From a virus: a stretch of 64,000 bases of DNA. Position numbers and translations under genes: made by a program. The notes under the pieces were generated by a model, which ran no database searches, had not been told where the DNA came from, and saw only the letters and a list, made by a program, of their open reading frames with translations. Within the stretch, counting starts at the first letter, position 1. Every line of letters starts with the position of its first letter. Of the stretch, positions 12,897 through 61,332 are shown piece after piece. Location of the stretch: IMG/VR virus record IMGVR_UViG_3300005617_000232, positions 1-64,000 of that record. One strand, 5' to 3'.

Positions 12897-17609
<4,713 letters not shown>

Positions 17610-27391: not shown

Positions 27392-27813
27392 CAGGACTTC
27401 GTCCCGGGCGGGAGCACGATGCGGCTGTTAGGTATCGCGATCGGCGACCGCGCGTCCGGGTGCTTCTCCCAGGGCGGCGGCAGGTCGGAGAGCGACATGC
27501 CCTCGCCGATGATGGCCGCGCCGCCGGGGAGGATGCCCTGCTGCATGACGCCTTGCAGGAGCGTGCCGAGCACCTTGTGGCAGGTCTCCATCATGGCCGA
27601 CTGCTCCTCGGTCACGTCCTCGGGGTCGGTGCCCGGCCACACGAACGACTCCTTCGGGACGGTCAGCACCACGATGTCGCCGCGCTTCGGGGTCACGGTC
27701 GCGATCCAGTCGAGGATCATCTTCGTCATCCGCTCCTCGTGCGCTCGCTGCTTCTCCTTCGCTTCCTCGGCGGCGGCGCGCAGGTCGCGCTTCTTCTCCT
27801 GGGCCTGGCTCAC
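27391..27813 (-). CDS. hypothetical protein, coiled N-terminus
   Basis: 140 residues from a GTG overlapping the glycosyltransferase stop. Charged coiled coil (about 1-30), then a compact domain with TPKRGDIVVLTVP and several Met-rich segments. No recognised family. Confidence 0.65.
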   Translation of the reverse strand: MSQAQEKKRDLRAAAEEAKEKQRAHEERMTKMILDWIATVTPKRGDIVVLTVPKESFVWPGTDPEDVTEEQSAMMETCHKVLGTLLQGVMQQGILPGGAAIIGEGMSLSDLPPPWEKHPDARSPIAIPNSRIVLPPGTKS

Positions 27814-28553
27814 GGGCGGGATGCTAGCGCCGCCAGCGGGTCGGGGATAGAGGGCGGCCACGGCTTCCAGTCGAGCGTGACGTCCTCGTCGGGGTCGAGC
27901 AGCGACTGGAGGTGGGCGTTCGCATGGAAGCGCCCTCCATCGTGCTCGTAGTACCGGTCGGCCCGGGCCTGGCGCTCAGCCACGCGCGTCCATCCGAAGT
28001 GGTAGACGCCGACGCCGGTGTCGAAGCCGCGCTGCCCGCGAACGCGCTGAGGCTCACGGCCGCACGCGAGCTTCTTGTGGGGGATGCGCCAACTCGAACC
28101 GGTCAGCTTCGCAGGGGCCTGCCACAGGATCGGGCAGCGACGGTCGCCCCACTGGCCGTCCACGCGCAGGCCCACGCGCTCGCCGTCGACCTTCCAGACC
28201 TCGCGCATCCACAGCGAGTAGACCGGGGCCTGGTTCACGGTCAGGCTGCCGCGCAGAGCCACCGTGTCGCCGATGAACTCGTCGGCGTCTATCGAGAGCA
28301 CGTAGGTCGGCTGCCCCGAGATCGTCCACGCGAGCAGCCGGTTGCGCGCGACGGACTCGTCCTCGAAGAACGGCGGGCCGTCGTTGCGCTCGACGTGCAC
28401 GTCCTCGAACTCGGCGGCGACATCCCAGGTGGCATCGGTCGAGTAGTCGTCGAGCAGGCGCACCTCGTCGCAGAACGTGAGCAGGTGGTGCAGCCAGGGT
28501 TCGAGGTAGCGGTCGGCCTCGTTGTGCACGATCGCGGACGCGATGAGCTTCAC
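27810..28553 (-). CDS. glycosyltransferase family 2-like
   Basis: 247 residues, GTG start (GTGA). GT-A hallmarks: VHNEADRYLEPWLHHLL at residues 9-25, DDYSTDATWDVA (nucleotide site), and a DAD metal motif (89-91) in VLSIDADEF. Followed by an acceptor region with W-rich segments. Likely inverting. First of a run of glycan genes to about 35.4 kb. Confidence 0.87.
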   Translation of the reverse strand: MKLIASAIVHNEADRYLEPWLHHLLTFCDEVRLLDDYSTDATWDVAAEFEDVHVERNDGPPFFEDESVARNRLLAWTISGQPTYVLSIDADEFIGDTVALRGSLTVNQAPVYSLWMREVWKVDGERVGLRVDGQWGDRRCPILWQAPAKLTGSSWRIPHKKLACGREPQRVRGQRGFDTGVGVYHFGWTRVAERQARADRYYEHDGGRFHANAHLQSLLDPDEDVTLDWKPWPPSIPDPLAALASRP

Positions 28554-28786
28554 GCCGAATCCAGCCACTGGTCGAGCAGCGCCTGCGGGTCCTCGCTCTC
28601 GCAGAGCGTCACGGTGTCCACGATGGTCTGACGGATCTCGTCGCGGTAGGGACGGCCGGGGTCGTCGTCCAGGAAGCCGTCGCGGCACTGGATGTGCAGG
28701 GTGGCGAGCCTCATCACCATCACGTCGGTGAGGGACTCAATCTCTCGCGGCGTGAGGCCAGATCGGTCACGTCCTGCGGTAGCCAT
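28550..28786 (-). CDS. small helical protein
   Basis: 78 residues from an ATG inside the 3' end of the next upstream glycosyltransferase (67-base overlap). Acidic with two Cys; no known domain. The unusually long overlap means the start is uncertain. Confidence 0.6.
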   Translation of the reverse strand: MATAGRDRSGLTPREIESLTDVMVMRLATLHIQCRDGFLDDDPGRPYRDEIRQTIVDTVTLCESEDPQALLDQWLDSA

Positions 28787-34703: not shown

Positions 34704-34724
34704 AGTAACTAGTGACTAATGACT
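34704..34724 (-). promoter_or_regulatory. three tandem heptamers, probable operator
   Basis: Forward sequence AGTAACT AGTGACT AATGACT: three heptamers in tandem, 3 bases upstream of the RHH-type gene's ATG and overlapping the stop of the glycosyltransferase. AT-rich islands in a GC-rich genome. Tandem short repeats are typical of RHH operators. Confidence 0.65.
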
Positions 34725-35405
34725 AGCCCCTCTACGCCAGAGCGGCTGCCTCGACTTGAACAGCGCGTGGTCCTCCCGGTAGCGGCGCTGGCCCCGCTGG
34801 TACGTGGCGTCGTCGGTGCCCTTGCGCATGCCCTGGTCGTCGCGCCAGATGTGGTGCAGGTGCTCGACGTGGGAGCGCCGGGCCGAGAAGTACGCGCGGC
34901 GGGCCTTCGCGGTCTCGATGAGTTCGTTGTCGACCCAGCAGTGCCAGTAGCCCTCGTGCAGCGCCTTGCCCGGCTCGTCGATCGTGCCGTGCTGCTCGAT
35001 GTACTCGCGCGAGATCAGGGAGTGCGTGGAGTGCATCCCGCGCTTCACCAGCGGGTTGCCCAGGTCGTTGGTGCCGGTGACGCCAGGGAGCCGCTGAGCG
35101 ATCTCCAGGGCCTCCTCGTCCCAGCCTGGGTGGAAGCGCAGGTCGTCGCCGCCCTGGAACACGTAGGGCGCGTTCGTGCACAGGACGCCGTAGTTGATCT
35201 TGCGCGCGTAGTCGCCACCCTCCAGGAGGAAGGGAACGATGTGGTAGGCAGCGTCCGTTCGCGAGCACGCGGCGATCTGCTCCGTGTCTCCGGACGTGCA
35301 CAGGAACACGATCTCGGTGACCAGGGTGGATGCCTCGTGGATGGACTCGACCAGCGGGCCTGCGCGCTCGGGTCGATCGAGCACCGGGATGAGGACGGCG
35401 ATCAC
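34716..35405 (-). CDS. glycosyltransferase-like protein
   Basis: 229 residues from GTG (GTGA). GT-A-like: AVLIPVLDRPER, VFLCTSGDT and FQGGDDLRFHPG with a GGDD metal-site-like turn; acceptor-side WHCWVDNELIETAKARR. Sits directly after terminase in transcription order and begins the glycan run. Confidence 0.8.
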   Translation of the reverse strand: MIAVLIPVLDRPERAGPLVESIHEASTLVTEIVFLCTSGDTEQIAACSRTDAAYHIVPFLLEGGDYARKINYGVLCTNAPYVFQGGDDLRFHPGWDEEALEIAQRLPGVTGTNDLGNPLVKRGMHSTHSLISREYIEQHGTIDEPGKALHEGYWHCWVDNELIETAKARRAYFSARRSHVEHLHHIWRDDQGMRKGTDDATYQRGQRRYREDHALFKSRQPLWRRGASH

Positions 35406-37048
35406 CCGCGCAGACCGGGCCGGTAGGACGTGTCGCGCTCGCCCGAAGGTGCGCGGAAGCGCGGCGGCTGGGCCTGGCCCGACGGCACGCTCATGGTCAC
35501 CCCGCCGGTCTTGTTGCGCGACCAGATCACCATGCTCGACCACGCGTCCACCTGGTCGTCGTGGCTGCCCATGTTGAACACCGCAAGCTCCTCGATGAAC
35601 GCCTGCACGCGGGCAGGGGTGCGCGGGTCGTAGTCGGTGCCTTCGTCGTTCATGTAGCCCGGCAGGAAGCAGTTGTGGCCCACCAGCGCAGGCTCGGCGG
35701 ACTCGGCGCGGACCTCCTTCGACCCCTTCGCTTGACCCAGCACCACGCCCTGCACGCGCGAGCGAACGGAAGCGGCGGCGTCGGGACCGTTGGCCGTGTT
35801 CTCGATGAGCACGAACTGCGGGACGTCGGGCCATAGCGCCGACGACCAGATCGACAGTTCCAGCATGGCCTCAATGGTGGCGTTCAGCGCCGCGCGCTCG
35901 TGGTACAGGCGCAGCAGGTAGCGGTGCGCGCCCTTGCATCCCCACACCTGCCCGGCCACGAAGTCGGAGTGATCGCGGTCCTTCACGGACGTGTCCCAGG
36001 AGTGGACGATCAGGTCGAACAGCCCGACCCGCGACGCCAGTTCCGTCACCTGCTCAGGGCCGAACACCTCGCGCGGGGAGTAGTAGGACAACTCGGGCGG
36101 GTAGTAGCGCCAGTCCGCGCGCTTCAGCAGGTTGCCCTCCCGTGGGGCAGGGCGTTGCTGCAACTGCCCGGCGATCGTGTACTCGCTTCCCATGTCGGCC
36201 TTCAGGCGCGCCATCTCCTTCGCCCCGAAGCGCTCGGGCCACAGCAACTCCCCGGGCTTGGAGCGCTTGTCCTGCGGCCACACGAACGGATGCTTCGGCT
36301 CGTACTCGGCCGGAAGGCACAGGTGGTCCCAGCCGCCGCGCTCCAGTAGGTGGCCGGTCAGGTCCTGCTCGTGCAGGCGCTGCATGATGATCACCTCGAT
36401 GCCGGTGGCCGGATCGTTGAAGCGCGATGAGATGACCGAGTCGTGCCAGTTCAGCACCTTGCCGCGCAGCGCGTCGGAGGTCACCTCGTCGGCCTTGTGC
36501 GGGTCGTCGATGATCACGATGTCGCCGCCCTCGCCGGTCGCCGTGCCGCCTACCGACGTCGCGATGCGGTAGCCGGTGCGGTCGTTCTCGTAGCGCGTCT
36601 TCTGGTTCTGGTCGCCGGTGAGCGCGAACACGTCCGAGAAGCGCGACAGGAACCACCCTGACTGGATGAGCCGCCTGGACTTGACTGCATCCCTGGTCGC
36701 CAGATCGTCGCCGTAGGAGGCCGTCAGGAAGCGCATGGAGGGCTTGGTCGTCCACAGCCACACCGGCCAGAACACGCTGACCGCGAGCGACTTCATGTGC
36801 CGCGGCGGGATGTTGACGATCAGGCGCTGCACCTCGCCCTCAGCGCAGTCCTCCAACTTCTCGGCGATGGCATCGACGTGCCAGCCCTGGGAGTACTCGG
36901 TCGTCGGCTCGATGACCGACCACGCGCCCCGGATGAACGCGCGGAAGTCGCCGCTCAGGCGCTCGGCCTCCTCGGCCAGCATCTCCCCGTTCTTACGCCG
37001 CTCGATGGCGGCGTCGATCTCCGTGAGGGCTTCCGCGTAGGTGGTCAC
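35402..37048 (-). CDS. terL: terminase large subunit
   Basis: 548 residues, GTG start (GTGA). N-terminal ATPase: Walker A-like PPRHMKS (81-87), Walker B IVIIDD (177-182), then a C-motif region. C-terminal nuclease: HSWDTSVKD, IENTANG and SHDDQVDA, the acidic triad of RNase H-like packaging nucleases. It cuts and pumps DNA into the procapsid through the portal. Confidence 0.96.
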   Translation of the reverse strand: MTTYAEALTEIDAAIERRKNGEMLAEEAERLSGDFRAFIRGAWSVIEPTTEYSQGWHVDAIAEKLEDCAEGEVQRLIVNIPPRHMKSLAVSVFWPVWLWTTKPSMRFLTASYGDDLATRDAVKSRRLIQSGWFLSRFSDVFALTGDQNQKTRYENDRTGYRIATSVGGTATGEGGDIVIIDDPHKADEVTSDALRGKVLNWHDSVISSRFNDPATGIEVIIMQRLHEQDLTGHLLERGGWDHLCLPAEYEPKHPFVWPQDKRSKPGELLWPERFGAKEMARLKADMGSEYTIAGQLQQRPAPREGNLLKRADWRYYPPELSYYSPREVFGPEQVTELASRVGLFDLIVHSWDTSVKDRDHSDFVAGQVWGCKGAHRYLLRLYHERAALNATIEAMLELSIWSSALWPDVPQFVLIENTANGPDAAASVRSRVQGVVLGQAKGSKEVRAESAEPALVGHNCFLPGYMNDEGTDYDPRTPARVQAFIEELAVFNMGSHDDQVDAWSSMVIWSRNKTGGVTMSVPSGQAQPPRFRAPSGERDTSYRPGLRG

Positions 37049-42375: not shown

Positions 42376-43611
42376 TTATGCAGTGGGGGCGTACTCGGGC
42401 TGACCCGTGAAGTCGGCGTAGCGCTGGCGGATGACGTCGCAGTAGGCGGGGTCGATCTCCATGATCAGCGCCCGTCGCCCTGCCACCTCTGCGGCGACCA
42501 GAGTGGAACCCGAGCCGCCGAATAGGTCGAGGACTGTCTCCCCGCGCCGAGTGCTGTTGAGAATGGCCCGTTCCAGCAGCGCGACAGGCTTCTGTGTGGG
42601 ATGGAGATCATTGGTGCGTGGCTTCGGGTGTTCCCAGATGGTGACCTCGTTGGTAGCTCCGAAGAACCGCGGAGCCTTCTTCGCCTTCGAGGCATAGAGC
42701 AACGGCTCGTGCCTGGGTATGTACTGGGCGGTGAGCGCGCCGGTGGGAACGTCCTTCACCCAGATGATCACGGCCCGCTGAGTGAAGCCGGAATCGACGA
42801 CCGCGTTCAACACCTCGCGCGAGCGCGAGTCGGAGAACCAGAGGTACAAGGAGCCGTCCGGGCGCAGCAACTCAAACATGACCGGCAACGCCGCTGCGTA
42901 CAACTCGGCGTTCTGATCCCCGAGCACCGTTCGCGTCTTGCGCTTGCCCGTTCGAGCAGAGAACTCCTGCGCGCCGCCCTGGTACTTCACCCCGTAAGGA
43001 GGGTCGGTCAGCACCAGGTCGACACCACCGCCGGTCAGATGCCTTACCTGCTCGTCGTCGGTGGCGTCGCCGCACATAAGTCGATGCCCACCCAGTTCGT
43101 AGACCTCCCCAAGCGCGGAACGCGGGTCGGCTGGAGGGTCGACAACCGCGTCAGGATCGCCGACGCGGTTCCCGCGGTTCCGCCATTCAATATCCGCCAG
43201 CAACTCCTCTACGTCGTCGCGCTCGTACCCTGTGCCGCGCAGGGCGTCCGCGTCGTAGTACGGCTTCAGCAACTCGGCCAGCAGGTCGTCCTCGTACTCG
43301 CCCAGGTCGCCCGTGCGGTTATCGGCCAGCAGGTACGCCTCCACCTCGGCCTCGGTCAGGTCGGAGCGCACGACCGCGATGTGCGTCCAGCCCGCGTCGA
43401 CCGCAGCGCGCAGGGTGTGGTTGCCCGCCACCACCGTGCCGTCCGGCAGTGCCAGGATGGGTCGCTGCTGCCCGAAGCGCTCCAGGGACGCGCGGATGGC
43501 CTCCACGTTGCCCCGGCGCGGGTTGCGCGGGTGCGCCTGCATCTCGTCGACCGGCGCGAGCATCCGCCGCAGACCCTCGTTGCCGTTCCACACCTTGCGC
43601 GCAGTCGCCAT
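42376..43611 (-). CDS. ParB-domain DNA methyltransferase
   Basis: 411 residues, ATG in an ATGA overlap. N-terminal ParB-like nuclease/CTPase-fold domain (about 18-110: HPRNPRRGNVEAIRASLERFGQQRP, GTVVAGNHTLRAA) and C-terminal N6-adenine/N4-cytosine methyltransferase with DPPY (203-206) and FGGSGS near 372, in the order of beta-class enzymes. The ParB part probably guides DNA binding. Likely protects phage DNA from restriction or regulates it. Confidence 0.9.
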   Translation of the reverse strand: MATARKVWNGNEGLRRMLAPVDEMQAHPRNPRRGNVEAIRASLERFGQQRPILALPDGTVVAGNHTLRAAVDAGWTHIAVVRSDLTEAEVEAYLLADNRTGDLGEYEDDLLAELLKPYYDADALRGTGYERDDVEELLADIEWRNRGNRVGDPDAVVDPPADPRSALGEVYELGGHRLMCGDATDDEQVRHLTGGGVDLVLTDPPYGVKYQGGAQEFSARTGKRKTRTVLGDQNAELYAAALPVMFELLRPDGSLYLWFSDSRSREVLNAVVDSGFTQRAVIIWVKDVPTGALTAQYIPRHEPLLYASKAKKAPRFFGATNEVTIWEHPKPRTNDLHPTQKPVALLERAILNSTRRGETVLDLFGGSGSTLVAAEVAGRRALIMEIDPAYCDVIRQRYADFTGQPEYAPTA

Positions 43612-44009
43612 CAGAGCGAAGCGTACAAGCGGCGCTGGAGCCACTCAGCGCGCTTCTCCGGGCCTCCGAGGCGTTCGGCGAGGTAGGCCATCGTGTCCGG
43701 CCGGTTGCGCGTCAGGTACGCACCCAGCAGCCTGCGGGTGACTTCATGCTCGGCGGTGAGCTTGCCGTGGCAGCCGGTGGTGCCGTCACCACAGAGCATC
43801 ACCAGGTTGGCCTCGACGTCGTCGCGCGGCTTGTTGAGCAGGTGATGGAGGGTGAGCTTGCGCGTGGCGCGGGTGGCCCCGCAGATCACGCACTCGTCCC
43901 AGTGGACGTGCAGGCGGCGCAGGAGTTCCAGGTCGCGGACCCGGCGCACGGGCTTCGGGTCAGGTGCCAAGCGGCTCGCGGATCGGCTGGGGGTCGAAGG
44001 GCTTGCCAC
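43611..44009 (-). CDS. HNH endonuclease
   Basis: 132 residues. Clear HNH: CVICGATRATRKLTLHHLLNKPRDDVEANLVMLCGDGTTGCHGKL (Cys ligands and HH). The start is uncertain: an ATG at 44009 or a TTG about 38 bases later near the overlap. Possibly a packaging-associated or homing nuclease. Confidence 0.85.
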   Translation of the reverse strand: MASPSTPSRSASRLAPDPKPVRRVRDLELLRRLHVHWDECVICGATRATRKLTLHHLLNKPRDDVEANLVMLCGDGTTGCHGKLTAEHEVTRRLLGAYLTRNRPDTMAYLAERLGGPEKRAEWLQRRLYASL

Positions 44010-44358: not shown

Positions 44359-44747
44359 CGGGGCGGCAGCCCCAGAAGGGCGCGTAGCGGCACCACACGG
44401 GCACGTGTCGGGCAGGAACCGTAGGGCTGGTCGCGTACCTCGGCTACCTCCACAAGGCCGCGCAGGCGGGCCGTGGAGACGCCGACGAAGCACGAAGGCG
44501 GATCCCCGAGGGCGAAGATCCAGCAGTCGGCTTCGCTAGTCGAGATGCCGCACGGCTTCCACTGGCCCTGCCGTCCGGGATCGTGCGCGACCTCGACGTA
44601 GACCTTGCCGGTCTCCAGCGCACGGCGGTCGTGCTTCACCTCGAAGCGGTCCCCTCCCGATGCCATCTCGTAGAACCACGCCTCGACCGCGAGGCCCCCG
44701 GCCAACTGCACGTCGAACCGGTAGTCGCGGTTGTGCGGAACGCTCAC
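44355..44747 (-). CDS. PD-(D/E)XK-type nuclease-like protein
   Basis: 130 residues, GTG in a GTGA overlap. GGDRFEVKHDRRALETGKVYVEV (D33, E36-V-K38) matches the catalytic strand of small restriction-fold nucleases seen in phages, followed by ISTSEADCWIF. Substrate unknown. Confidence 0.75.
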   Translation of the reverse strand: MSVPHNRDYRFDVQLAGGLAVEAWFYEMASGGDRFEVKHDRRALETGKVYVEVAHDPGRQGQWKPCGISTSEADCWIFALGDPPSCFVGVSTARLRGLVEVAEVRDQPYGSCPTRARVVPLRALLGLPPR

Positions 44748-45370
44748 CCGATCAGCCTCGGCAGCGTCTCGCGCACGTCGCCGTTCCACTCTCCGGGCAC
44801 CTCGTTCCCGAGGCTCACCCATCCCTCGCGCTGGCGGCGGGCGAACAGTTCGAGGTACGGCCCCGGGAAGGACTCGGCCAACTCGTAGAGCGTGTCGGGC
44901 TTGCGCGAGTGGCGCGCGTTCGTTGACAGCAGGCCGACCCAGTTCGTGCGCACCGCAGCGTTGCCGCGGGACGCCAGCAGGATCGGCTCCGAGCACCCGC
45001 GCAGCCAGTAGCCGACCCCGTAGGCCGGGGCGAACACCGGCTCGCGTCCGCCGGTGATGTCGGTCGCCTTCAACCACGGCAGCCCGGTCTTGAACGTGAA
45101 GCCCCACGTCTCGATGAGGCGCAGCGCGTCGGGGATGAAGGGCCAGGTCGTCCACAGCAACAGGACGGCATCGCGCGCGCACACGTCGCCGACGGGGAGC
45201 GCTTCCAGGGCTGCCTGGTCGAGCGTGCCGTACTCGTAGTTCGCGTAGCCGGTCAGGTCGCGGTGCTGGTTCGCAGCCTGGTACTGCCAGGGCGGGTCGG
45301 CGATCACGACCTTGAACGGGTCGCCGGACCACGGAGTGACCGGCGTCACCTCGTCCGCGAACAGGCTCAC
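44744..45370 (-). CDS. MT-A70-family methyltransferase
   Basis: 208 residues, GTG start. DPPW at 25-28 (VVIADPPWQY) and LLLWTTWPFIPDALRLIETWGF identify the MT-A70 group (adenine N6). In phages these usually methylate DNA. With the ParB-type enzyme, two methylation specificities are possible. Confidence 0.9.
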   Translation of the reverse strand: MSLFADEVTPVTPWSGDPFKVVIADPPWQYQAANQHRDLTGYANYEYGTLDQAALEALPVGDVCARDAVLLLWTTWPFIPDALRLIETWGFTFKTGLPWLKATDITGGREPVFAPAYGVGYWLRGCSEPILLASRGNAAVRTNWVGLLSTNARHSRKPDTLYELAESFPGPYLELFARRQREGWVSLGNEVPGEWNGDVRETLPRLIG

Positions 45371-45708
45371 AGCCGCTTCCACCACTGCTCCTCGCGGTCA
45401 CGCTCACTTCCCCACTCCACGTCCTCGATGAGGAGTTGGTGCTCGGGGGTGGCCGTCAGTTCGGCAGGCTCATCGCTGGGCAGCGCGTCGGCCTGCTCCA
45501 CCCCCGAGTCTTCAGCGTCCGGGTCGAACGTCTCGAACGCGGTGTCGACCTCGTCCTCGCGGTGAGGGTGCGCGCGCAGGTACGCCTGCATCGCCGCGGT
45601 GACGGGGTTGTCCGGGACCGACTCACCACAATCGGCCCCGGACCCACGAGCAAGCGGCCCTCCGTCCAGCCCTGAAGGGCTTCTGCGAGCGTACTCCTTC
45701 GGATTCAC
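45367..45708 (-). CDS. acidic hypothetical protein
   Basis: 113 residues, GTG start. Acidic, Pro-rich middle; C-terminus with several Trp. Unknown; overlaps both neighbours. Confidence 0.64.
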   Translation of the reverse strand: MNPKEYARRSPSGLDGGPLARGSGADCGESVPDNPVTAAMQAYLRAHPHREDEVDTAFETFDPDAEDSGVEQADALPSDEPAELTATPEHQLLIEDVEWGSERDREEQWWKRL

Positions 45709-45992: not shown

Positions 45993-46348
45993 CAGACCTC
46001 CTCTCTGATACGACCTGTGGATATTCCCTCCAGGGGGAGGACCGCCATCGCTCGACGGATCTGCTCCTGGCGTCGGGATGACATAAGCGGGTAGAGACGC
46101 TGGGTCAGTTCACGCGCCCGCGCCCCGATGAGTCGCCATTCCCAGATGTCCTGCTGAGCGCCCTGGTGCCAACTCTGTGCGCGTGCGCTCCTGCGTTGCA
46201 GATGAAGGCTGCCGCCGTGGGCCGCCTGGAGCCGCTCCAGCGGCTCTCGCTGCACCTGCTTCGCCTTCACCACCAGACCACGGTTGTCGTAGAACGTGCC
46301 CTCGCCCTCTAGGAAACCAGCGGTCCACATGAGGTCGGGATCGGTCAT
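45992..46348 (-). CDS. LAGLIDADG-like homing-type protein
   Basis: 118 residues, ATG start. One motif like the LAGLIDADG helix (AGFLEGEGTFYDNRG, residues 10-24) with a basic DNA-binding body (RRSARAQSWHQ) and a C-terminal helix. One domain suffices for dimeric enzymes. Freestanding, not in an intron as far as seen. Confidence 0.72.
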   Translation of the reverse strand: MTDPDLMWTAGFLEGEGTFYDNRGLVVKAKQVQREPLERLQAAHGGSLHLQRRSARAQSWHQGAQQDIWEWRLIGARARELTQRLYPLMSSRRQEQIRRAMAVLPLEGISTGRIREEV

Positions 46349-47010
46349 TCGACACCGAGGGCCGCGCGCACCCTGGTTAGGTCGTCGCGTCGCACCACGA
46401 CATTCTCCCCGGCCTCCTGTGCGTTGGCGAGCAGACTGTGCACCGCGTCCAGCAGGCGCGGGATGTCCGGCTCACCCTCGTCAAGCACCGGGGGGAGAGA
46501 TGGACGTTCGGTCGGCTCCTCGCGCACCTCCTGCTTCATGCGCTCGTTCAGCACCGCTCGCGTCCAGCCCGCCTCGGCGGCGCGCTTCAGCCAGGTCTTC
46601 TGGTCGCGGCCGGACAGGGGTGCCACCAGTGCGTGCGTGGAGAAACTCAGAGACGGCTCACGGCGCGACGGAGGCACCGAGCGGCAGACCCATAGGCGGT
46701 TCAGGAGCGTCTGCTCGGCCAGGCCCGTCGCCTCGATGGCCTGCGCGAAGCGCTCGCGGTACGCGCCCTCCCCGAACAGGAGCCAGTCGCCTATCCACCA
46801 CGCGCAGGATCGGTTGATCAGCCCGAGCGCGGCCCCGAGCGCCTCGTACTTCTCATACGGCAGGTCGGGGTCGAGGCGCAGGGAGGTGCCCGTGGTGTCG
46901 AGCACGCCCCCAGCGCGCAACTCGTCGATGACGCTTGCCGCGGTGCGCAGGTCGAGGCCCGGGAACGTGACCTCCGGGTTGACCTCCTCGACCAGGGCGA
47001 CGTTGCTCAC
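46345..47010 (-). CDS. LmbU-like protein
   Basis: 221 residues, ATG start. The core (INRSCAWWIGDWLLFGEGAYRERFAQAIEATGLAEQTLLNRLWVCRSVPPSRREPSLSF ends near FSTHALVAPL) matches LmbU-type regulators, which bind DNA in actinomycete antibiotic clusters, and related phage proteins. Probably a transcription factor of the early genes. Confidence 0.75.
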   Translation of the reverse strand: MSNVALVEEVNPEVTFPGLDLRTAASVIDELRAGGVLDTTGTSLRLDPDLPYEKYEALGAALGLINRSCAWWIGDWLLFGEGAYRERFAQAIEATGLAEQTLLNRLWVCRSVPPSRREPSLSFSTHALVAPLSGRDQKTWLKRAAEAGWTRAVLNERMKQEVREEPTERPSLPPVLDEGEPDIPRLLDAVHSLLANAQEAGENVVVRRDDLTRVRAALGVE

Positions 47011-47772: not shown

Positions 47773-47811
47773 GGCACGGCGCAGTCTAGCGGGTGCGGCG
47801 GCTGTTGTCAC
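47770..47811 (-). promoter_or_regulatory. repeat-class promoter P4
   Basis: GTGACA (47806-47811), 17-base spacer, TAGACT (47783-47788), 10 bases ending GTGCC, then ATGAAGTCC. It overlaps the end of the yhhQ gene. Confidence 0.78.
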
Positions 47812-48362
47812 GCCGTCACGGGTTTCCCGGGGATGCGCCGCAGCGCCCAGATGACGGGGATGGCCGCGAGCGTCATCCACGCCTTGCCCACGATCTGCCC
47901 CTCGACCAGTTCGCGGTGCCACCAGCCGAACGCGAGCGTGACGAAGATGATGGAGTCGAGCACGAAGCCGACGACGTTGCTAGCCACCAGGGCCTTGAGC
48001 CAGCCGCGCTCGGACAGCGGCTCGTACACGGCCAGGTCGGACATCTCGGAGATGAGGAACGCGATGGCCGACGCAACCGCGACCGACACGTATCCGCCGG
48101 GGATCGTCGAGTTGGCTTCGATGGCGATGGACAGCCCGGCACCCACCAGGATCGCCACGATGACCGCTGAGCGGCCCAGGGAGCGATGGACGACGTCCCT
48201 GAGGGTGAAGGCCAGGCCAGCGAACCAGACGCCCGCAGGAGCCGTCAGGCCGAAGCCGACGGACGTGAAGCCCCAGTGCGTGACGGCGTAGTTCGCGGCC
48301 CAGACGGTGCCGACGAACAGTGCGGCTGCCACCAGCCCTACGGCGTTATCTCGAAGTCGCAA
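47808..48362 (-). CDS. yhhQ: YhhQ-like 7-deazapurine (queuosine precursor) transporter
   Basis: 184 residues; five to six TM helices (TAGVWFAGLAFTLRDVVHRSLG, AVIVAILVGAGLSIAI, VSVAVASAIAFLISEMSDLAVY, KALVASNVVGFVLDSIIFVTLAFGWW). The FTLRDVVHRSLGR and SEMSDLAVYEPL segments are characteristic of the VUT/YhhQ family, which imports preQ0/preQ1. Adjacent to a DpdA-like enzyme, it would supply the base for DNA modification. No preQ0 biosynthesis genes are present. Confidence 0.85.
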   Translation of the reverse strand: MRLRDNAVGLVAAALFVGTVWAANYAVTHWGFTSVGFGLTAPAGVWFAGLAFTLRDVVHRSLGRSAVIVAILVGAGLSIAIEANSTIPGGYVSVAVASAIAFLISEMSDLAVYEPLSERGWLKALVASNVVGFVLDSIIFVTLAFGWWHRELVEGQIVGKAWMTLAAIPVIWALRRIPGKPVTA

Positions 48363-49188
48363 CGGTCAGTCCTCCCTCCTGGCGGTAACCGTCCGGTTCC
48401 GGCCAGTTCTCGATGGATTCCAGAATCTGGTCACGCCACGCGAGTGCCCAGTCGAGGCAGTTCGCGCAGGTCTTCGCCTTGTGCTCCGTCGGGTGGAGCT
48501 TCCCACAGAGCGTCCGGCGGGGCCAGTTGAACAGCGACGGCTGCTGGTCGTCGCCCGACACCCAGCGGGCCTGGGAACTCCAGGACATGGAGTCGGCCGA
48601 GGTAAGCGCGTCGGCGTACTTCTCGATACCGGCGACCTTCACTCCGAAGCCGTGCAACTTGAGCGGCAGGAGGGAGCGGAAGATGTCGGCCGCCTCCTGC
48701 GTGTTCTGGCGGCGGCAGACTGAGCCGACTCCGATGAGTGGCTCGTTGCTCAGGTCGACGTCGTTCTCGTCGTACATCTCTGCGCAGCGGTGGTAGTCGT
48801 CGACCGTCCAGCCCTGAAGCACCGGGATGACGACCGACCCAAGCCGCTCGCGCAGCGACATGAAGTTCAGCACCGTGCGCAGTTGGTGCTCCTCGATAGT
48901 CAGGCCCGTCTTCGCGAGCACGAACGGCTCGCACATCCAGTCCATCGGGGCAGCCCACGCGAGGTTGCCGATCTCGTCCTCGAACCGGCGAACGTCGGCG
49001 ACGTACTCGTCCTCGGTGGTCAGCCAGGCCCCGTGCATGTTCAACTCGGTAAAGCCTCCCGAGTCGAGTGCCCACGGGCCTACGGCGACCGGCAGCGTCT
49101 TGCGCTCGTAGAGGCGGCGGCGCGAGACGAACAGGTCGCGCTCGGTCTCCAGCCAGTTCGGCCGGTGCGTGCCGAGCCAGAACTTCAC
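48346..49188 (-). CDS. dpdA: DpdA-like tRNA-guanine-transglycosylase-fold DNA modification enzyme
   Basis: 280 residues, GTG in a GTGA overlap. TGT hallmarks: DSGGF at 42-46 (general-base Asp and substrate loop), PVLQG near 122-126 and SADSMSWS with D199 as the candidate nucleophile. C228, H232 or H236, C241 and C244 form a probable zinc site. DpdA enzymes swap guanine in DNA for a 7-deazaguanine, protecting phage DNA from host nucleases. Next to the transporter; the stop overlaps its start by 17 bases. Confidence 0.87.
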   Translation of the reverse strand: MKFWLGTHRPNWLETERDLFVSRRRLYERKTLPVAVGPWALDSGGFTELNMHGAWLTTEDEYVADVRRFEDEIGNLAWAAPMDWMCEPFVLAKTGLTIEEHQLRTVLNFMSLRERLGSVVIPVLQGWTVDDYHRCAEMYDENDVDLSNEPLIGVGSVCRRQNTQEAADIFRSLLPLKLHGFGVKVAGIEKYADALTSADSMSWSSQARWVSGDDQQPSLFNWPRRTLCGKLHPTEHKAKTCANCLDWALAWRDQILESIENWPEPDGYRQEGGLTVATSR

Positions 49189-49862
49189 GCGCCCGCCTCC
49201 TCCAGGATGCGCTCGGCCTCGACGTAGGTCTGGTACCACGGCTCGTGCTCGTCGACCGGCCCCTGCGCCAGCACTGCGATGGCGTCGGCCTTCTCCTCCT
49301 CGGTCGGGGGGTCCATCGGCACGCCGCCCATGCGCCTGATCCAGCGCCACTGCACCGGGCGGGGGATGACGCGCTCGGTCGCCGGAAGCTCCTTCATCGT
49401 CGGGCCGAGTTCAGGGAAGATGCTGACGCCGGTCAGCGCAGGCTGCGGCGGGCGGCCTCCGCGGACGTAGTCGTTGAGCGCCTGCTGGCGCAGGTTGTCG
49501 TATGCCTTGCGGAACTGCGCTCGCACGGTCGCGATGTTGTCGGAGTGCAGGATGGCCCAGCGGCCACCGACGTGCTCGGCAGCGGCGCGCACGGTCTCGG
49601 GTGCCTGCTTCAGGCTGCCGCGCTCAGCGATCTCCCACGCCTCCTCGGTGGTCGGCAGGTTGAGCGCGCGCTCGGCCACCTGCTCCAGGATCTGCCCGAT
49701 GGAGGGCCGGAACTTCTCGGTCCCGATGAGGTCGTCGACCGCCTGGGCCACGACGCCCTCCGGGAACTGGCTGAGCTTGTCCGCGTAGCGCGCGATGGCA
49801 CGGTCCGAGAACTCCTCCCGCCAGGAATCCTGTAGGGCTTCGAGCACGGGCACGAGGCTCAT
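49185..49862 (-). CDS. helicase loader (G39P-like)
   Basis: 225 residues, ATG in an ATGA overlap. N-terminal helices with YADKLSQFPEGVVAQAVDDLIGTEKFRPSIGQILEQV (about 23-60) resemble the G39P/DnaC-family loader inhibitor domain; the remainder is Ala/Glu helical. It would place the host replicative helicase at the phage origin with the initiator upstream. Confidence 0.72.
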   Translation of the reverse strand: MSLVPVLEALQDSWREEFSDRAIARYADKLSQFPEGVVAQAVDDLIGTEKFRPSIGQILEQVAERALNLPTTEEAWEIAERGSLKQAPETVRAAAEHVGGRWAILHSDNIATVRAQFRKAYDNLRQQALNDYVRGGRPPQPALTGVSIFPELGPTMKELPATERVIPRPVQWRWIRRMGGVPMDPPTEEEKADAIAVLAQGPVDEHEPWYQTYVEAERILEEAGA

Positions 49863-50614
49863 GCGCTTCTCCTCTCGGTCACGAGTTGGACGATCTTCTC
49901 GATGCGGCCCTCGCTGCGCGCCTTCGCGTTGACGGCCTGGATGGAGCGCTCGAACTGCGCACCTGAGCCGTACACCACCGATGGCGACGGTGGCCCCTTC
50001 CACCACGGGTCGGCGAGCGCGGCCTGGATGATCAGGCGGTGGTCGTCGAACGTGGCCTCGGGGTACTCGCGGATGCGCAGGATGATCTTCGAGAGCCAGT
50101 CGGCAGAGCGAAGGTTCTGGCCGGTCAGTTCGTTCCAGGTCTTCAGCACCCAGACGGCCTTAACGGCGTGCTCCTTCGTGACGGGCTTTCGGTCGACGGT
50201 GCTCGGCACCGACGATAGTTCGCGCGCGCGCGGTTCTATGTCTTTGGATGGTTGCTCTTTGGATGGTTGCTCTAAGGACGGTTCGGGCGTAATCCTGACG
50301 CCCCCCTGTGTCGTAGATGTCGCCCCCTCCGGTGCAGTAGATGTCGCCCCGGGGGGTGACATATTGACGCCCCACCGAACCGCACCCGAATCGTGGGTGC
50401 CGGTGTTCGTGATCGCACCGGAAGACTCCAGATCCCGGAGGCAACGTTGCACCTGGCGACGTGACATCCGAGCCTCGTGCGCGATCGTGGCGACCGCGGG
50501 CCATGAGTCCCTGCCGTCCTCGCCAGCGTGGTCGGCGAGCACGAGCAGTACGAGCCTACGTCCGAGCGTCTCCTCGGAGTGCTTCAGAACCCAACTCATT
50601 ACGTGGACTGACAT
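49859..50614 (-). CDS. HTH replication initiator
   Basis: 251 residues, ATG start. N-terminal HTH_36-like domain (SWPAVATIAHEARMSRRQVQRCLRDLESSGAI, about 37-70), a low-complexity middle with repeats (GATST and EQPSK pairs) and a C-terminal helical domain with WVLKTWNELTGQNLRS. Matches phage initiators placed before a helicase loader. Middle repeats are candidate origin iterons. Confidence 0.77.
   Translation of the reverse strand: MSVHVMSWVLKHSEETLGRRLVLLVLADHAGEDGRDSWPAVATIAHEARMSRRQVQRCLRDLESSGAITNTGTHDSGAVRWGVNMSPPGATSTAPEGATSTTQGGVRITPEPSLEQPSKEQPSKDIEPRARELSSVPSTVDRKPVTKEHAVKAVWVLKTWNELTGQNLRSADWLSKIILRIREYPEATFDDHRLIIQAALADPWWKGPPSPSVVYGSGAQFERSIQAVNAKARSEGRIEKIVQLVTERRSA
50230..50370 (-). 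repeat. direct repeats in initiator gene, candidate origin
   Basis: Minus strand: GGGGCGACATCTAC occurs twice (about 50310-50360) and GAGCAACCATCCAAA twice in direct tandem (about 50236-50265) with AT-rich flanks. Iteron-like repeats inside the initiator gene recall the lambda ori. They also make the protein's repeated segments. Confidence 0.55.
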
Positions 50615-59393: not shown

Positions 59394-59999
59394 CTATGAG
59401 GCTTCGCGGATGGTTACGAACGCGAGACCCGAGCGGACGAAGTGGTTGCTCGGGTGGTGGTTGAGCGCAGCGCGTGCTCGCGCCTGCTGCGTGAACTCCT
59501 CGTCGTAGCGGAAGCCCACCGCCGCCATCGCGCCCTTCCAGTACGCGGCGGGCTGGCAGTTGACGTGGTGGTGCCCGGCCTGGCCCGGCTCCGCGTGCGT
59601 CAGCAGCACGGCGCGCGCCATCTGGAAGGTCGCGAGGAAGTTCGGGACGTGCTCCTCGGCGACGTGCTCGACGAACTCACACGACCACACAAGGTCGGTC
59701 GCTCCCTTCTCTAGCTGGCTGCCGTACACCTCAGTCGGCCACGGGCCTCGGGTGTAGTCGTGCATGTAGAACTGCCAGTTCTCGGAGACTTGCAGCACGC
59801 CGTCGATGCCGGTCACGTCGCAGCCCGCGTCGGCGAAGTAGCGCGCCGCATGGCCTTCCCCGCAGCCGACGTCGATCACGCTGCGGACACCCTGGACGAA
59901 CACGAGCCAGTCCCACAGGTCCGGGTACCAGGTCGCGGCGTCGCCGCCCTCGATGTAGCCGCCGAGGTGCGGGCGCTCCGTCTCGATGTAGAACGTCAC
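59394..59999 (-). CDS. SAM-dependent methyltransferase
   Basis: 201 residues, GTG in a GTGA overlap. VIDVGCGEGHAARYFADAGCDVTGIDG (SAM loop) and LVWSCEFVEHVAEEHV (motif II/III region). Class I; HHHV and Trp residues in the substrate side. Next to a GT4 enzyme; possible sugar or lipid methylation. Confidence 0.88.
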   Translation of the reverse strand: MTFYIETERPHLGGYIEGGDAATWYPDLWDWLVFVQGVRSVIDVGCGEGHAARYFADAGCDVTGIDGVLQVSENWQFYMHDYTRGPWPTEVYGSQLEKGATDLVWSCEFVEHVAEEHVPNFLATFQMARAVLLTHAEPGQAGHHHVNCQPAAYWKGAMAAVGFRYDEEFTQQARARAALNHHPSNHFVRSGLAFVTIREAS

Positions 60000-60193
60000 G
60001 CACGCCACCAGATGATGAGCGCGGAGCCGAACAGGATCAGTCCGCTCGCGAAGAAGCAGCCCAGCATCGGCCCATAGCGCCAGTAGCAGCCGACCGTCAG
60101 CACCGCTCCGACGACCATAAGCACGGCTGTCTTCCAGGCTGCTGCCCACAGACGGGCACGCAGCATCCACTCAGGGTCGTGCTCGCGCGGCAT
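59996..60193 (-). CDS. 65-residue membrane protein
   Basis: ATG start. Two TM segments (TAVLMVVGAVLTVGCYW, LGCFFASGLILFGSALIIW). Basic ends. Unknown. Confidence 0.66.
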   Translation of the reverse strand: MPREHDPEWMLRARLWAAAWKTAVLMVVGAVLTVGCYWRYGPMLGCFFASGLILFGSALIIWWRA

Positions 60194-60198
60194 CCTGC

Positions 60199-61332
60199 TC
60201 ACGCGCGAGATGTCCCTGCGTACCAGCCTCGCTCGAACAGCGACCCGAGCCGGTTGAACCACTCCGCGTAGCGCGGCCCCACAGCGTCCAGGGAGAAGCG
60301 ATCGAGCGCCTCCTTACGTACCTTGCTCGGCTTCAGCTGCATGGCCCTCTCCGTGGCTCTCACGCCCTCTGCGAGGGTCGTGAAGCGAAGCTCGTCGGGA
60401 ACGGTGTCCACGAACGCTCCGAAGTCGGTGGAGACGGCCGGGGTGCCGCACAGCGGCCCCTCGACGGCGACCGCGCCGAACGGCTCGATGTAGCACGTCG
60501 GCACGAGCAGCGCCCGCGCTTTCCCCATCAGTTCGTTCCGCTCGGCCACGCCGACGGTGCCGACGTAGTGGACGTCGCCCTCCAGCCGCGTGCCGTCGTG
60601 GCACTCGATCAGCCCCTCGGCCGAGTGAGACACGCCGCTGCCCGCGAAGTAGATCGGCATCTTCAACTCGTGCGCGATCTCGGCGGCGATCTGCACGCCC
60701 TTGCGCGCGATCATCCGGCCGACGAAGCAGAGGTAGTCGTCCTTGTGCTTGTGCAGCGACCACTCCTCGGGCGCGAAGAAGTTTGGGATGACGGAGTCGA
60801 AGAAGCGCCCGGTGGCCTGGCCCCACTTGCCGTACATGAAGTGCCGCCAGGCGTTCGACTCGAAGCAGATGTGCGGGTGCCGCTCCATGCTGCGGTCCGA
60901 GATCATCACGCCGTCGTAGCCCGCCGCCCACTCGACGGTCACGCCCGGCGGCATGGCCTGGTGGATCGGCTTCATCGCAAGCCCGCCGGTGAGCAGCACG
61001 AGGTCGCCCTGCTCGTAGCGCACCATGATCTCCCCGATCGCCCTGGCGTTGATCGTGCGGTAGCTGAAGTCGGTCGACGACCAGCTCCCCGCCACGATCG
61101 GCAGCATGTTTGCGTCGCCGTCTCCGTACCACTCGTGCATCTCCTCGTCGGAGAACAGCGGCACCAGAGTGGTGCCGGGCGGGGCGTCTGACCGCTCGCC
61201 GCCGTAGAGGACGATCTCCCACCCCAGGGCGGTCATCATGGTCAGGAACTTCGCCGTCTTCGTCGTGAACGCACAGACGGTCACGTCGCGCGAAACGTGC
61301 GCGTGCGGGAGTGCGACGAGGTGCAGCCTCAC
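60199..61332 (-). CDS. glycosyltransferase family 4-like
   Basis: 377 residues. GT-B with a GT4-type nucleotide-sugar site (LCFVGRMIARKGVQIAAEIAHEL; VPTCYIEPFGAVAVEGPLCGTPAVSTDFGAF with the E-x7-E pattern). Retaining transferase with unknown donor. Lies between tail-tip and lysis genes, away from the main glycan run. Confidence 0.87.
   Translation of the reverse strand: MRLHLVALPHAHVSRDVTVCAFTTKTAKFLTMMTALGWEIVLYGGERSDAPPGTTLVPLFSDEEMHEWYGDGDANMLPIVAGSWSSTDFSYRTINARAIGEIMVRYEQGDLVLLTGGLAMKPIHQAMPPGVTVEWAAGYDGVMISDRSMERHPHICFESNAWRHFMYGKWGQATGRFFDSVIPNFFAPEEWSLHKHKDDYLCFVGRMIARKGVQIAAEIAHELKMPIYFAGSGVSHSAEGLIECHDGTRLEGDVHYVGTVGVAERNELMGKARALLVPTCYIEPFGAVAVEGPLCGTPAVSTDFGAFVDTVPDELRFTTLAEGVRATERAMQLKPSKVRKEALDRFSLDAVGPRYAEWFNRLGSLFERGWYAGTSRA

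What the first reader, a model, noticed from the sequence alone, without database searches (positions are those of the whole stretch)
47808..49188. DpdA beside a YhhQ-like transporter: salvage-based 7-deazaguanine DNA modification
A TGT-fold enzyme with the DSGGF motif, PVLQG, a candidate nucleophile D199 and a Cys/His zinc cluster overlaps a YhhQ-family transporter gene. TGT-fold proteins of this type (DpdA) insert 7-deazaguanines into DNA. YhhQ imports preQ0/preQ1. No folE/queD/queE/queC homologues are visible, so the phage may import the precursor rather than make it. Together with two DNA methyltransferases the genome may be heavily modified. Known family logic; the specific gene pair and lack of synthesis genes are the interesting part.
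Basis: partly seen in the sequence, partly recalled or inferred. Interest (0 to 1): 0.85.

Follow-up and report, generated by a model that had tools for sequence, protein, structure and literature searches.

The report
Phage DNA-base swap enzyme with importer
This bacterial virus carries a two-gene cassette: an enzyme of the kind that swaps guanine in DNA for a modified base, and beside it a membrane protein that most likely imports that base from outside the cell; the same pairing recurs in many unrelated viruses and mobile elements that cannot make the base themselves.

Summary
Window 48346-49188(-) is a DpdA (Pfam PF23859, E 4e-80). Its predicted structure best matches the solved DNA preQ0 insertase DpdA, and all three TGT-type aspartates are invariant. 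It overlaps by 17 bp a Vut_1-family (YhhQ-like) transporter gene at 47808-48362(-), which has its own ribosome-binding site. folE, queD, queE and queC families are absent from the 64,173-bp record.

The pairing is not peculiar to this phage. Vut sits beside dpdA in 23 of 80 viral and 29 of 80 bacterial-genome DpdA loci, always on the same strand, 50 of 52 times overlapping or within 11 bp, in both gene orders. Searching from the transporter instead, 47 of 51 distinct viral Vut genes lie within 500 bp of a TGT/DpdA-like gene with no que gene nearby; three enzyme families are involved. Of 27 bacterial genomes carrying the pair, none has a tRNA TGT and 14 have no QueC.

This strongly favours a salvage cassette feeding DNA modification, beyond the 2019 survey, which saw no correlation of phage YhhQ with any phage group. 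Transport, substrate and modified base are untested; the transporter falls below queuosine-precursor-transporter equivalog cut-offs, so preQ0/preQ1 is inferred.

The parts
48346..49188 (-). dpdA: TGT-fold DNA guanine/7-deazaguanine transglycosylase, 280 aa; D42, D83 and D199 invariant, Cys/His cluster at 228-244
   Evidence: PF23859 E 3.9e-80, phrog_1279 E 2.2e-84; AlphaFold model pLDDT 89.5, best PDB match 7UI4 DpdA Z 18.6, then TGTs Z about 18; conservation
47808..48362 (-). Vut_1-family (YhhQ-like) 6-TM transporter, 184 aa, TTG start, overlaps dpdA by 17 bp
   Evidence: PF02592 E 2.1e-10, phrog_4899 E 3.6e-35; below the TIGR00697/PRK11212 equivalog cut-offs; model pLDDT 89.9 with the fold of ECF S-components such as RibU, BioY, ThiT, Z 9-10.5
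48371..48380 (-). Shine-Dalgarno-like AGGAGGGAGG of the transporter gene, inside the 3' end of dpdA
   Evidence: read from the sequence
49185..49865 (-). upstream gene, weak helicase-loader-like match; its stop overlaps the dpdA start by 4 bp
   Evidence: phrog_2289 helicase loader E 6e-4, phrog_9804 E 2e-9; sequence
49859..50614 (-). replication-initiation-like protein with HTH_36; places the pair in the replication module
   Evidence: phrog_1032 E 5e-20, PF13730 E 3e-10
42376..43644 (-). DNA methyltransferase (N6_N4) with ParB-like N-terminal part
   Evidence: PF01555 E 1.8e-29; phrog_498 E 3e-105
44744..45385 (-). MT-A70-type DNA methyltransferase
   Evidence: PF05063 E 6.4e-26; phrog_359 E 1.2e-46

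Best explanation
The two genes form a co-translated salvage cassette for 7-deazaguanine DNA modification. The Vut/YhhQ-like protein is made in the host membrane and brings in an exogenous 7-deazaguanine base, most likely preQ0 or preQ1. DpdA then exchanges selected guanines in the replicating phage DNA for that base through a TGT-type covalent mechanism: D199 attacks C1', D42 acts as acid/base and D83 reads the base (roles by analogy with TGT). The phage carries no synthesis genes, so the modification depends on base supplied by the host or the surroundings; its likely benefit is protection from host restriction. Shown here by computation: gene identity, intact catalytic residues, fold, translational overlap, absence of synthesis genes in the record, and a strict and repeated Vut-DpdA linkage. 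Inferred: transport activity and substrate, enzyme activity, the presence of modified base in virions, and the protective role.
For: Profiles and structures place the enzyme next to the solved DNA preQ0 insertase DpdA 7UI4. Synthesis families are absent from the record. Linkage from the enzyme side: Vut beside dpdA in 23/80 viral and 29/80 genome loci, all on the same strand, 50/52 overlapping or within 11 bp; 46 of 141 distinct DpdAs, with Vut upstream (40) or downstream (6, including the window). Linkage from the transporter side: 47 of 51 distinct viral Vut genes lie within 500 bp of a TGT/DpdA-like gene with no que gene in the locus, across three enzyme families; families B and C share three conserved Asp and an S-x-D ending. 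Whole records: 0 of 30 Vut+ phage records have QueC against 4 of 19 Vut- records (CAjan set aside), and no Vut occurs in any Vut- record. Hosts: 0 of 27 Vut-DpdA genomes have a full tRNA TGT (controls 14/14; one, G007, has a borderline match of 26.4 bits near QueC that is not a full-length TGT), and 14 of 27 lack QueC, so in those genomes no known tRNA use or internal source of the base remains. 19 of 22 DpdA genomes without the adjacent gene have no Vut anywhere. Literature: E. coli YhhQ imports preQ0 (PMC5372724); DpdA inserts preQ0 into DNA and protects it from restriction enzymes (PMC6884629).
Against: No biochemical data. The transporter is below the NCBIfam cut-offs for queuosine precursor transporters (31.6 against 50.95 bits). 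Most DpdA loci (90 of 141 distinct) have neither Vut nor que genes nearby, so DpdA is kept without a linked supply. Mycobacteriophage Orion, a DpdA-only phage, had no detectable modification (PMC6884629). QueC is no rarer in Vut+ hosts (13/27) than in Vut- hosts (8/22), P 0.56. Two viral Vut loci (L181, L207), and CAjan, have que genes as well, so the transporter is not confined to phages without synthesis. The Vut scan was seeded with DpdA-linked Vut sequences, which favours that subfamily.
Confidence: 0.8

Rival explanations
1. Same cassette, different cargo: this transporter subfamily imports another 7-deazapurine (queuine, 7-carboxy-7-deazaguanine, a natural-product base) or another nucleobase, and DpdA inserts that base, giving a DNA modification not yet catalogued.
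For: The transporter scores below the preQ0/preQ1 equivalog cut-offs. COG1738 members differ in cargo: the E. coli one takes preQ0/preQ1, the Chlamydia one only queuine (PMC11130926). Three different enzyme families partner with it. Most carriers are actinomycetes, whose relatives make 7-deazaguanine natural products (own knowledge).
Against: Phage DpdAs tested so far insert preQ0 and its direct derivatives (PMC6884629). CAjan pairs a relative of this transporter with preQ0 synthesis genes.
Confidence: 0.2
2. The transporter serves the host's queuosine tRNA pathway (a metabolic boost), and its position beside dpdA is only shared regulation.
For: YhhQ's known role is queuosine salvage (PMC5372724); some hosts, such as rhizobia, are expected to have that pathway (own knowledge).
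Against: None of 27 genomes with the pair has a full tRNA TGT. Vut is essentially absent without a linked TGT/DpdA-like gene and appears with three such families.
Confidence: 0.04
3. DpdA here is inactive or acts on another substrate such as RNA or a small molecule, so no DNA modification results.
For: Orion, a DpdA-only phage, had unmodified DNA (PMC6884629); most homologues lack any linked source of base.
Against: Catalytic Asp residues are invariant in 71 of 71 relatives; the nearest solved fold is the DNA insertase; Orion was grown in a host without the pathway, and the related mycobacteriophage DpdA loci examined show no Vut nearby.
Confidence: 0.1

Closest known systems
Phage DpdA of 'group 3' (DpdA without preQ0/G+ synthesis genes), Hutinet et al. 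2019, PMC6884629
   Same: Singleton DpdA of the PF23859/phrog_1279 family, about 50% identical to mycobacteriophage proteins; no synthesis genes. The authors already proposed host-made preQ0 or uptake of exogenous 7-deazapurines, and noted that some phages encode YhhQ.
   Different: They reported no correlation of YhhQ with any phage group. Here the transporter overlaps dpdA as one unit, and the transporter subfamily is strictly linked to DpdA-like genes across many phages.
Seuratvirus CAjan / EC151 preQ0 modules
   Same: DpdA plus a YhhQ-like transporter in one region.
   Different: Those phages carry folE, queD, queE and queC; the transporter is not adjacent to dpdA and Seuratvirus transporters are only distantly similar to this one (about 34% over 61%).
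E. coli YhhQ / QPTR (COG1738, PF02592)
   Same: Pfam family, six-helix membrane protein, S-component-like fold (PMC5372724).
   Different: Shorter (184 aa), diverged, below the NCBIfam equivalog cut-offs; linked to DNA rather than tRNA modification.
Bacterial DpdA (7UI4)
   Same: Best structural match, Z 18.6 over 245 residues.
   Different: 413 aa and 13% identity; bacterial dpdA usually lies in a gene cluster of over ten genes forming a restriction-modification system (PMC6884629).

Membership tests
DpdA (PF23859, phage 7-deazaguanine DNA transglycosylase) | Match to the curated profile above its cut-off | tested here: met
   269.4 bits against 27, residues 2-267
DpdA (PF23859, phage 7-deazaguanine DNA transglycosylase) | TGT-type fold | tested here: met
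   7UI4 Z 18.6; Z. mobilis TGT Z about 17.9; model pLDDT 89.5
DpdA (PF23859, phage 7-deazaguanine DNA transglycosylase) | Three catalytic/recognition aspartates | tested here: met
   D42, D83, D199 identical in 71 of 71 relatives; their assignment to TGT roles rests on motif order and own knowledge of TGT, not on a computed residue superposition
DpdA (PF23859, phage 7-deazaguanine DNA transglycosylase) | C-terminal zinc site | tested here: inconclusive
   C228, H232, H236, C241, C244 present; H232 and C244 conserved, the others variable or poorly aligned; low-confidence part of the model
DpdA (PF23859, phage 7-deazaguanine DNA transglycosylase) | Inserts a 7-deazaguanine into DNA | not testable with these tools
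   needs LC-MS or an enzyme assay
Vut_1 family (PF02592) | Match above the Pfam gathering score | tested here: met
   41.6 bits against 27.2
Vut_1 family (PF02592) | Six-helix membrane protein with vitamin-transporter (S-component) fold | tested here: met
   Top 11 VIA-align matches are ECF S-components or CbiM/NikM-type proteins, Z 7.9-10.5; unrelated rows 6.6 or less
Queuosine precursor transporter equivalog (TIGR00697 / PRK11212, YhhQ-QPTR) | Match above the curated equivalog cut-off | tested here: not met
   31.6 bits against 50.95; 26.9 against 252. It is therefore filed as Vut_1 family, YhhQ-like, not as YhhQ
Queuosine precursor transporter equivalog (TIGR00697 / PRK11212, YhhQ-QPTR) | Transports preQ0, preQ1 or queuine | not testable with these tools
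   needs a transport assay
Phages with their own preQ0 synthesis (group 2 of PMC6884629) | folE, queD, queE, queC present | tested here: not met
   No match at E<=1 for PF01227, PF01242, PF04055, PF06508 in the 64,173-bp record; the record may be incomplete

The most novel reading that the evidence does not exclude
A mobile two-gene salvage cassette (importer plus base-exchange enzyme) has been assembled more than once from different TGT-like families. It makes the DNA modification of phages and other mobile elements depend on a 7-deazaguanine released by other microbes: an epigenetic shield switched on by what is in the medium, working even in hosts with no queuosine biology at all.
Probability: 0.55. 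Interest if true: 0.72.

Novelty: new variant of a known kind. Interest (0 to 1): 0.58.

Why it matters
The largest class of DpdA phages in the 2019 survey has the inserting enzyme but no known source of the base, and the one mycobacteriophage of that class that was tested carried no modification. A linked importer explains where the base could come from and predicts that modification appears only when the base is supplied; tests in standard medium would then wrongly report such phages as unmodified. It turns the question into a cheap experiment with phages already in collections, and links phage anti-restriction to cross-feeding of a micronutrient between microbes.

Tried and rejected
Host prediction: terminase and major capsid matches are weak and mixed (Roseobacter, Aeromonas, actinophages). 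High G+C, an LmbU-type regulator just below its cut-off and the capsid relatives suggest an actinobacterial host, but this is not settled. Sequence search of the PDB with DpdA and Vut profiles gave nothing. The idea that pair-carrying hosts lack preQ0 synthesis more often than other DpdA hosts was rejected (13/27 against 8/22 with QueC, P 0.56). Joining the window DpdA family to families B and C by profile comparison was inconclusive (B: 12% probability; C: none), although B and C are related to each other (95%). Strict mutual exclusion of Vut and que genes was rejected as absolute: L181, L207 and CAjan carry both. A first Vut alignment of very diverse members was too variable to scan with. 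Cui et al. 2023 and the 2024 MMBR review are not held, so an earlier description of the pair there cannot be excluded.

Full report
Observation. dpdA runs from 49188 to 48346 on the minus strand (280 aa) and the transporter from 48362 to 47808 (184 aa). The dpdA GTG follows GGAGGAGG and overlaps the stop of the previous gene by 4 bp; the transporter TTG lies 8 nt after AGGAGGGAGG and overlaps dpdA by 17 bp. Both therefore look translationally coupled, in a run with a replication-initiation-like gene and a weak helicase-loader-like gene. Profile matches are unambiguous: PF23859 DpdA E 4e-80, PF02592 Vut_1 E 2e-10, phrog_4899 E 4e-35. The transporter is below the NCBIfam cut-offs for queuosine precursor transporters, so its cargo is not given by annotation.

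Absence of synthesis genes. The window is an IMG/VR virus record of 64,173 bp. QueC, radical SAM, PTPS (QueD) and GTP cyclohydrolase I families have no match at E<=1, while most control genomes ring. The record may not be complete.

Structure. AlphaFold models from 71 and 44 related sequences reach pLDDT 89.5 and 89.9. For DpdA the best solved match is 7UI4, the DNA preQ0 insertase, Z 18.6, followed by archaeal and bacterial TGTs at about 18. For the transporter the eleven best matches are ECF S-components for riboflavin, biotin, thiamin and folate and related CbiM/NikM proteins, Z 7.9 to 10.5, above the unrelated rows. E. coli YhhQ is itself placed in the vitamin uptake (ECF-like) family and imports preQ0 (PMC5372724). 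D42, D83 and D199 are identical in all 71 DpdA relatives; the metal site is only partly conserved. Residue roles are assigned by motif order, not by superposed coordinates.

Linkage seen from the enzyme. A scan of viral contigs and one of bacterial genomes gave 80 DpdA loci each. A Vut gene lies beside dpdA in 23 and 29 of them, always on the same strand; 50 of 52 overlap or lie within 11 bp, the other two at 232 and 447 bp. After removal of near-copies, 46 of 141 DpdAs have it, 40 with Vut upstream and 6, including the window, with Vut downstream. On a quick tree the Vut label needs 17 changes and the gene order 3, so the pair has been made or lost repeatedly (fast tree, many weak branches). 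que genes occur in five viral loci, none with Vut.

Linkage seen from the transporter. A separate scan with Vut sequences gave 80 viral loci, 51 distinct. In 47 a TGT/DpdA-like gene lies within 500 bp and no que gene is present; one more is 769 bp away; two have a CAjan-type DpdA with que genes; one (L195) has an unknown 225-aa neighbour. Three enzyme families take part: the window's DpdA, family B (phrog_15826; Bhagsy, Aoka, ReqiPine5) and family C (phrog_887; RHph_N3_2, Pam5, RHph_X2_30). B and C are related by profile comparison; their link to the window family rests on conserved motifs and annotation, not on a significant profile match. The scan was seeded with DpdA-linked Vut genes, so it speaks for this subfamily.

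Whole records and hosts. In 30 phage records with the pair QueC is absent; 4 of 19 without it have QueC (P 0.02), and none of those 19 has a Vut gene anywhere. These records were chosen from the flank analysis, so the P value is only indicative. In 27 bacterial genomes that carry the pair, no full tRNA TGT is found although all 14 control genomes have one; G007 has a borderline partial match that lies near its QueC. 14 of the 27 have no convincing QueC. In 19 of 22 genomes with dpdA but no adjacent Vut there is no Vut at all (P 8e-11). In these hosts the imported base has no known tRNA use.

Mechanism. The best reading is import of a 7-deazaguanine base by the Vut protein and its exchange into DNA by DpdA. 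Steps shown by computation: gene identity, intact residues, fold, coupling, linkage, missing synthesis. Steps inferred: transport, cargo, exchange activity, base in the virion, protection from restriction. The main caution is that Orion, a DpdA-only phage, had unmodified DNA in M. smegmatis (PMC6884629); but that host makes no 7-deazaguanine, and the related mycobacteriophage DpdA loci examined here show no Vut gene, so the result is what the salvage model predicts for a phage without an importer.

Comparison with what is known. Hutinet et al. 2019 described DpdA-only phages, suggested exogenous uptake as one option, and found no correlation of YhhQ with any phage group. Phage preQ0 transporters beside full synthesis pathways are known from Seuratvirus and EC151, and YhhQ is reported in two haloviruses. 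Library searches found no description of a tight dpdA-Vut pair; two key papers are not held. I rate it a new variant of a known kind.

Noticed in passing
L158, L050 and other genome loci: Many dpdA loci without Vut sit among an FtsK-like gene, a Prim-Pol replication gene and a tyrosine integrase, the make-up of actinomycete integrative conjugative elements, suggesting DpdA also travels on these.
   Followed up: partly
L253 (Streptomyces sp. NBC_01216 plasmid), hits H183-H192: dpdA-like genes annotated as hypothetical proteins on large Streptomyces plasmids; in the one examined a DUF4007 gene lies nearby and no transporter is annotated next to it.
   Followed up: partly
L143:8132-9295, L151:7160-8488 and relatives: DNA methyltransferase genes (N6_N4 type in 20 distinct loci, C5-cytosine type in 14) lie within 2.5 kb of dpdA, mostly in Vut-carrying loci; the window also has two methyltransferases a few kb from the pair.
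   Followed up: partly
G007:C34:409616-415532 (also G006:C253, G020:C56): In some actinobacterial genomes a second Vut gene lies 2-3 kb from QueC, in one case with a TGT-like gene nearby, apart from the dpdA-Vut pair.
   Followed up: no
L195:1578-2255: The only distinct viral Vut without a recognised TGT-like neighbour overlaps by 4 bp an unknown 225-aa protein (phrog_23010) that contains an S-A-D-G stretch like the TGT-like families; possibly a fourth partner family.
   Followed up: partly
window 12897-17609 (-): 1570-aa collagen-like tail fibre protein with a locally higher G+C content.
   Followed up: no
window 60199-61332, 27810-28688, 34716-35834 (-): Glycosyltransferase-like genes (the third only weakly) and a SAM methyltransferase at 59394-60170; targets unknown.
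   Followed up: no
window 46345-47010 (-): LmbU-like transcriptional regulator (NF038070, 124.7 bits against a cut-off of 125) a little downstream of the pair.
   Followed up: no
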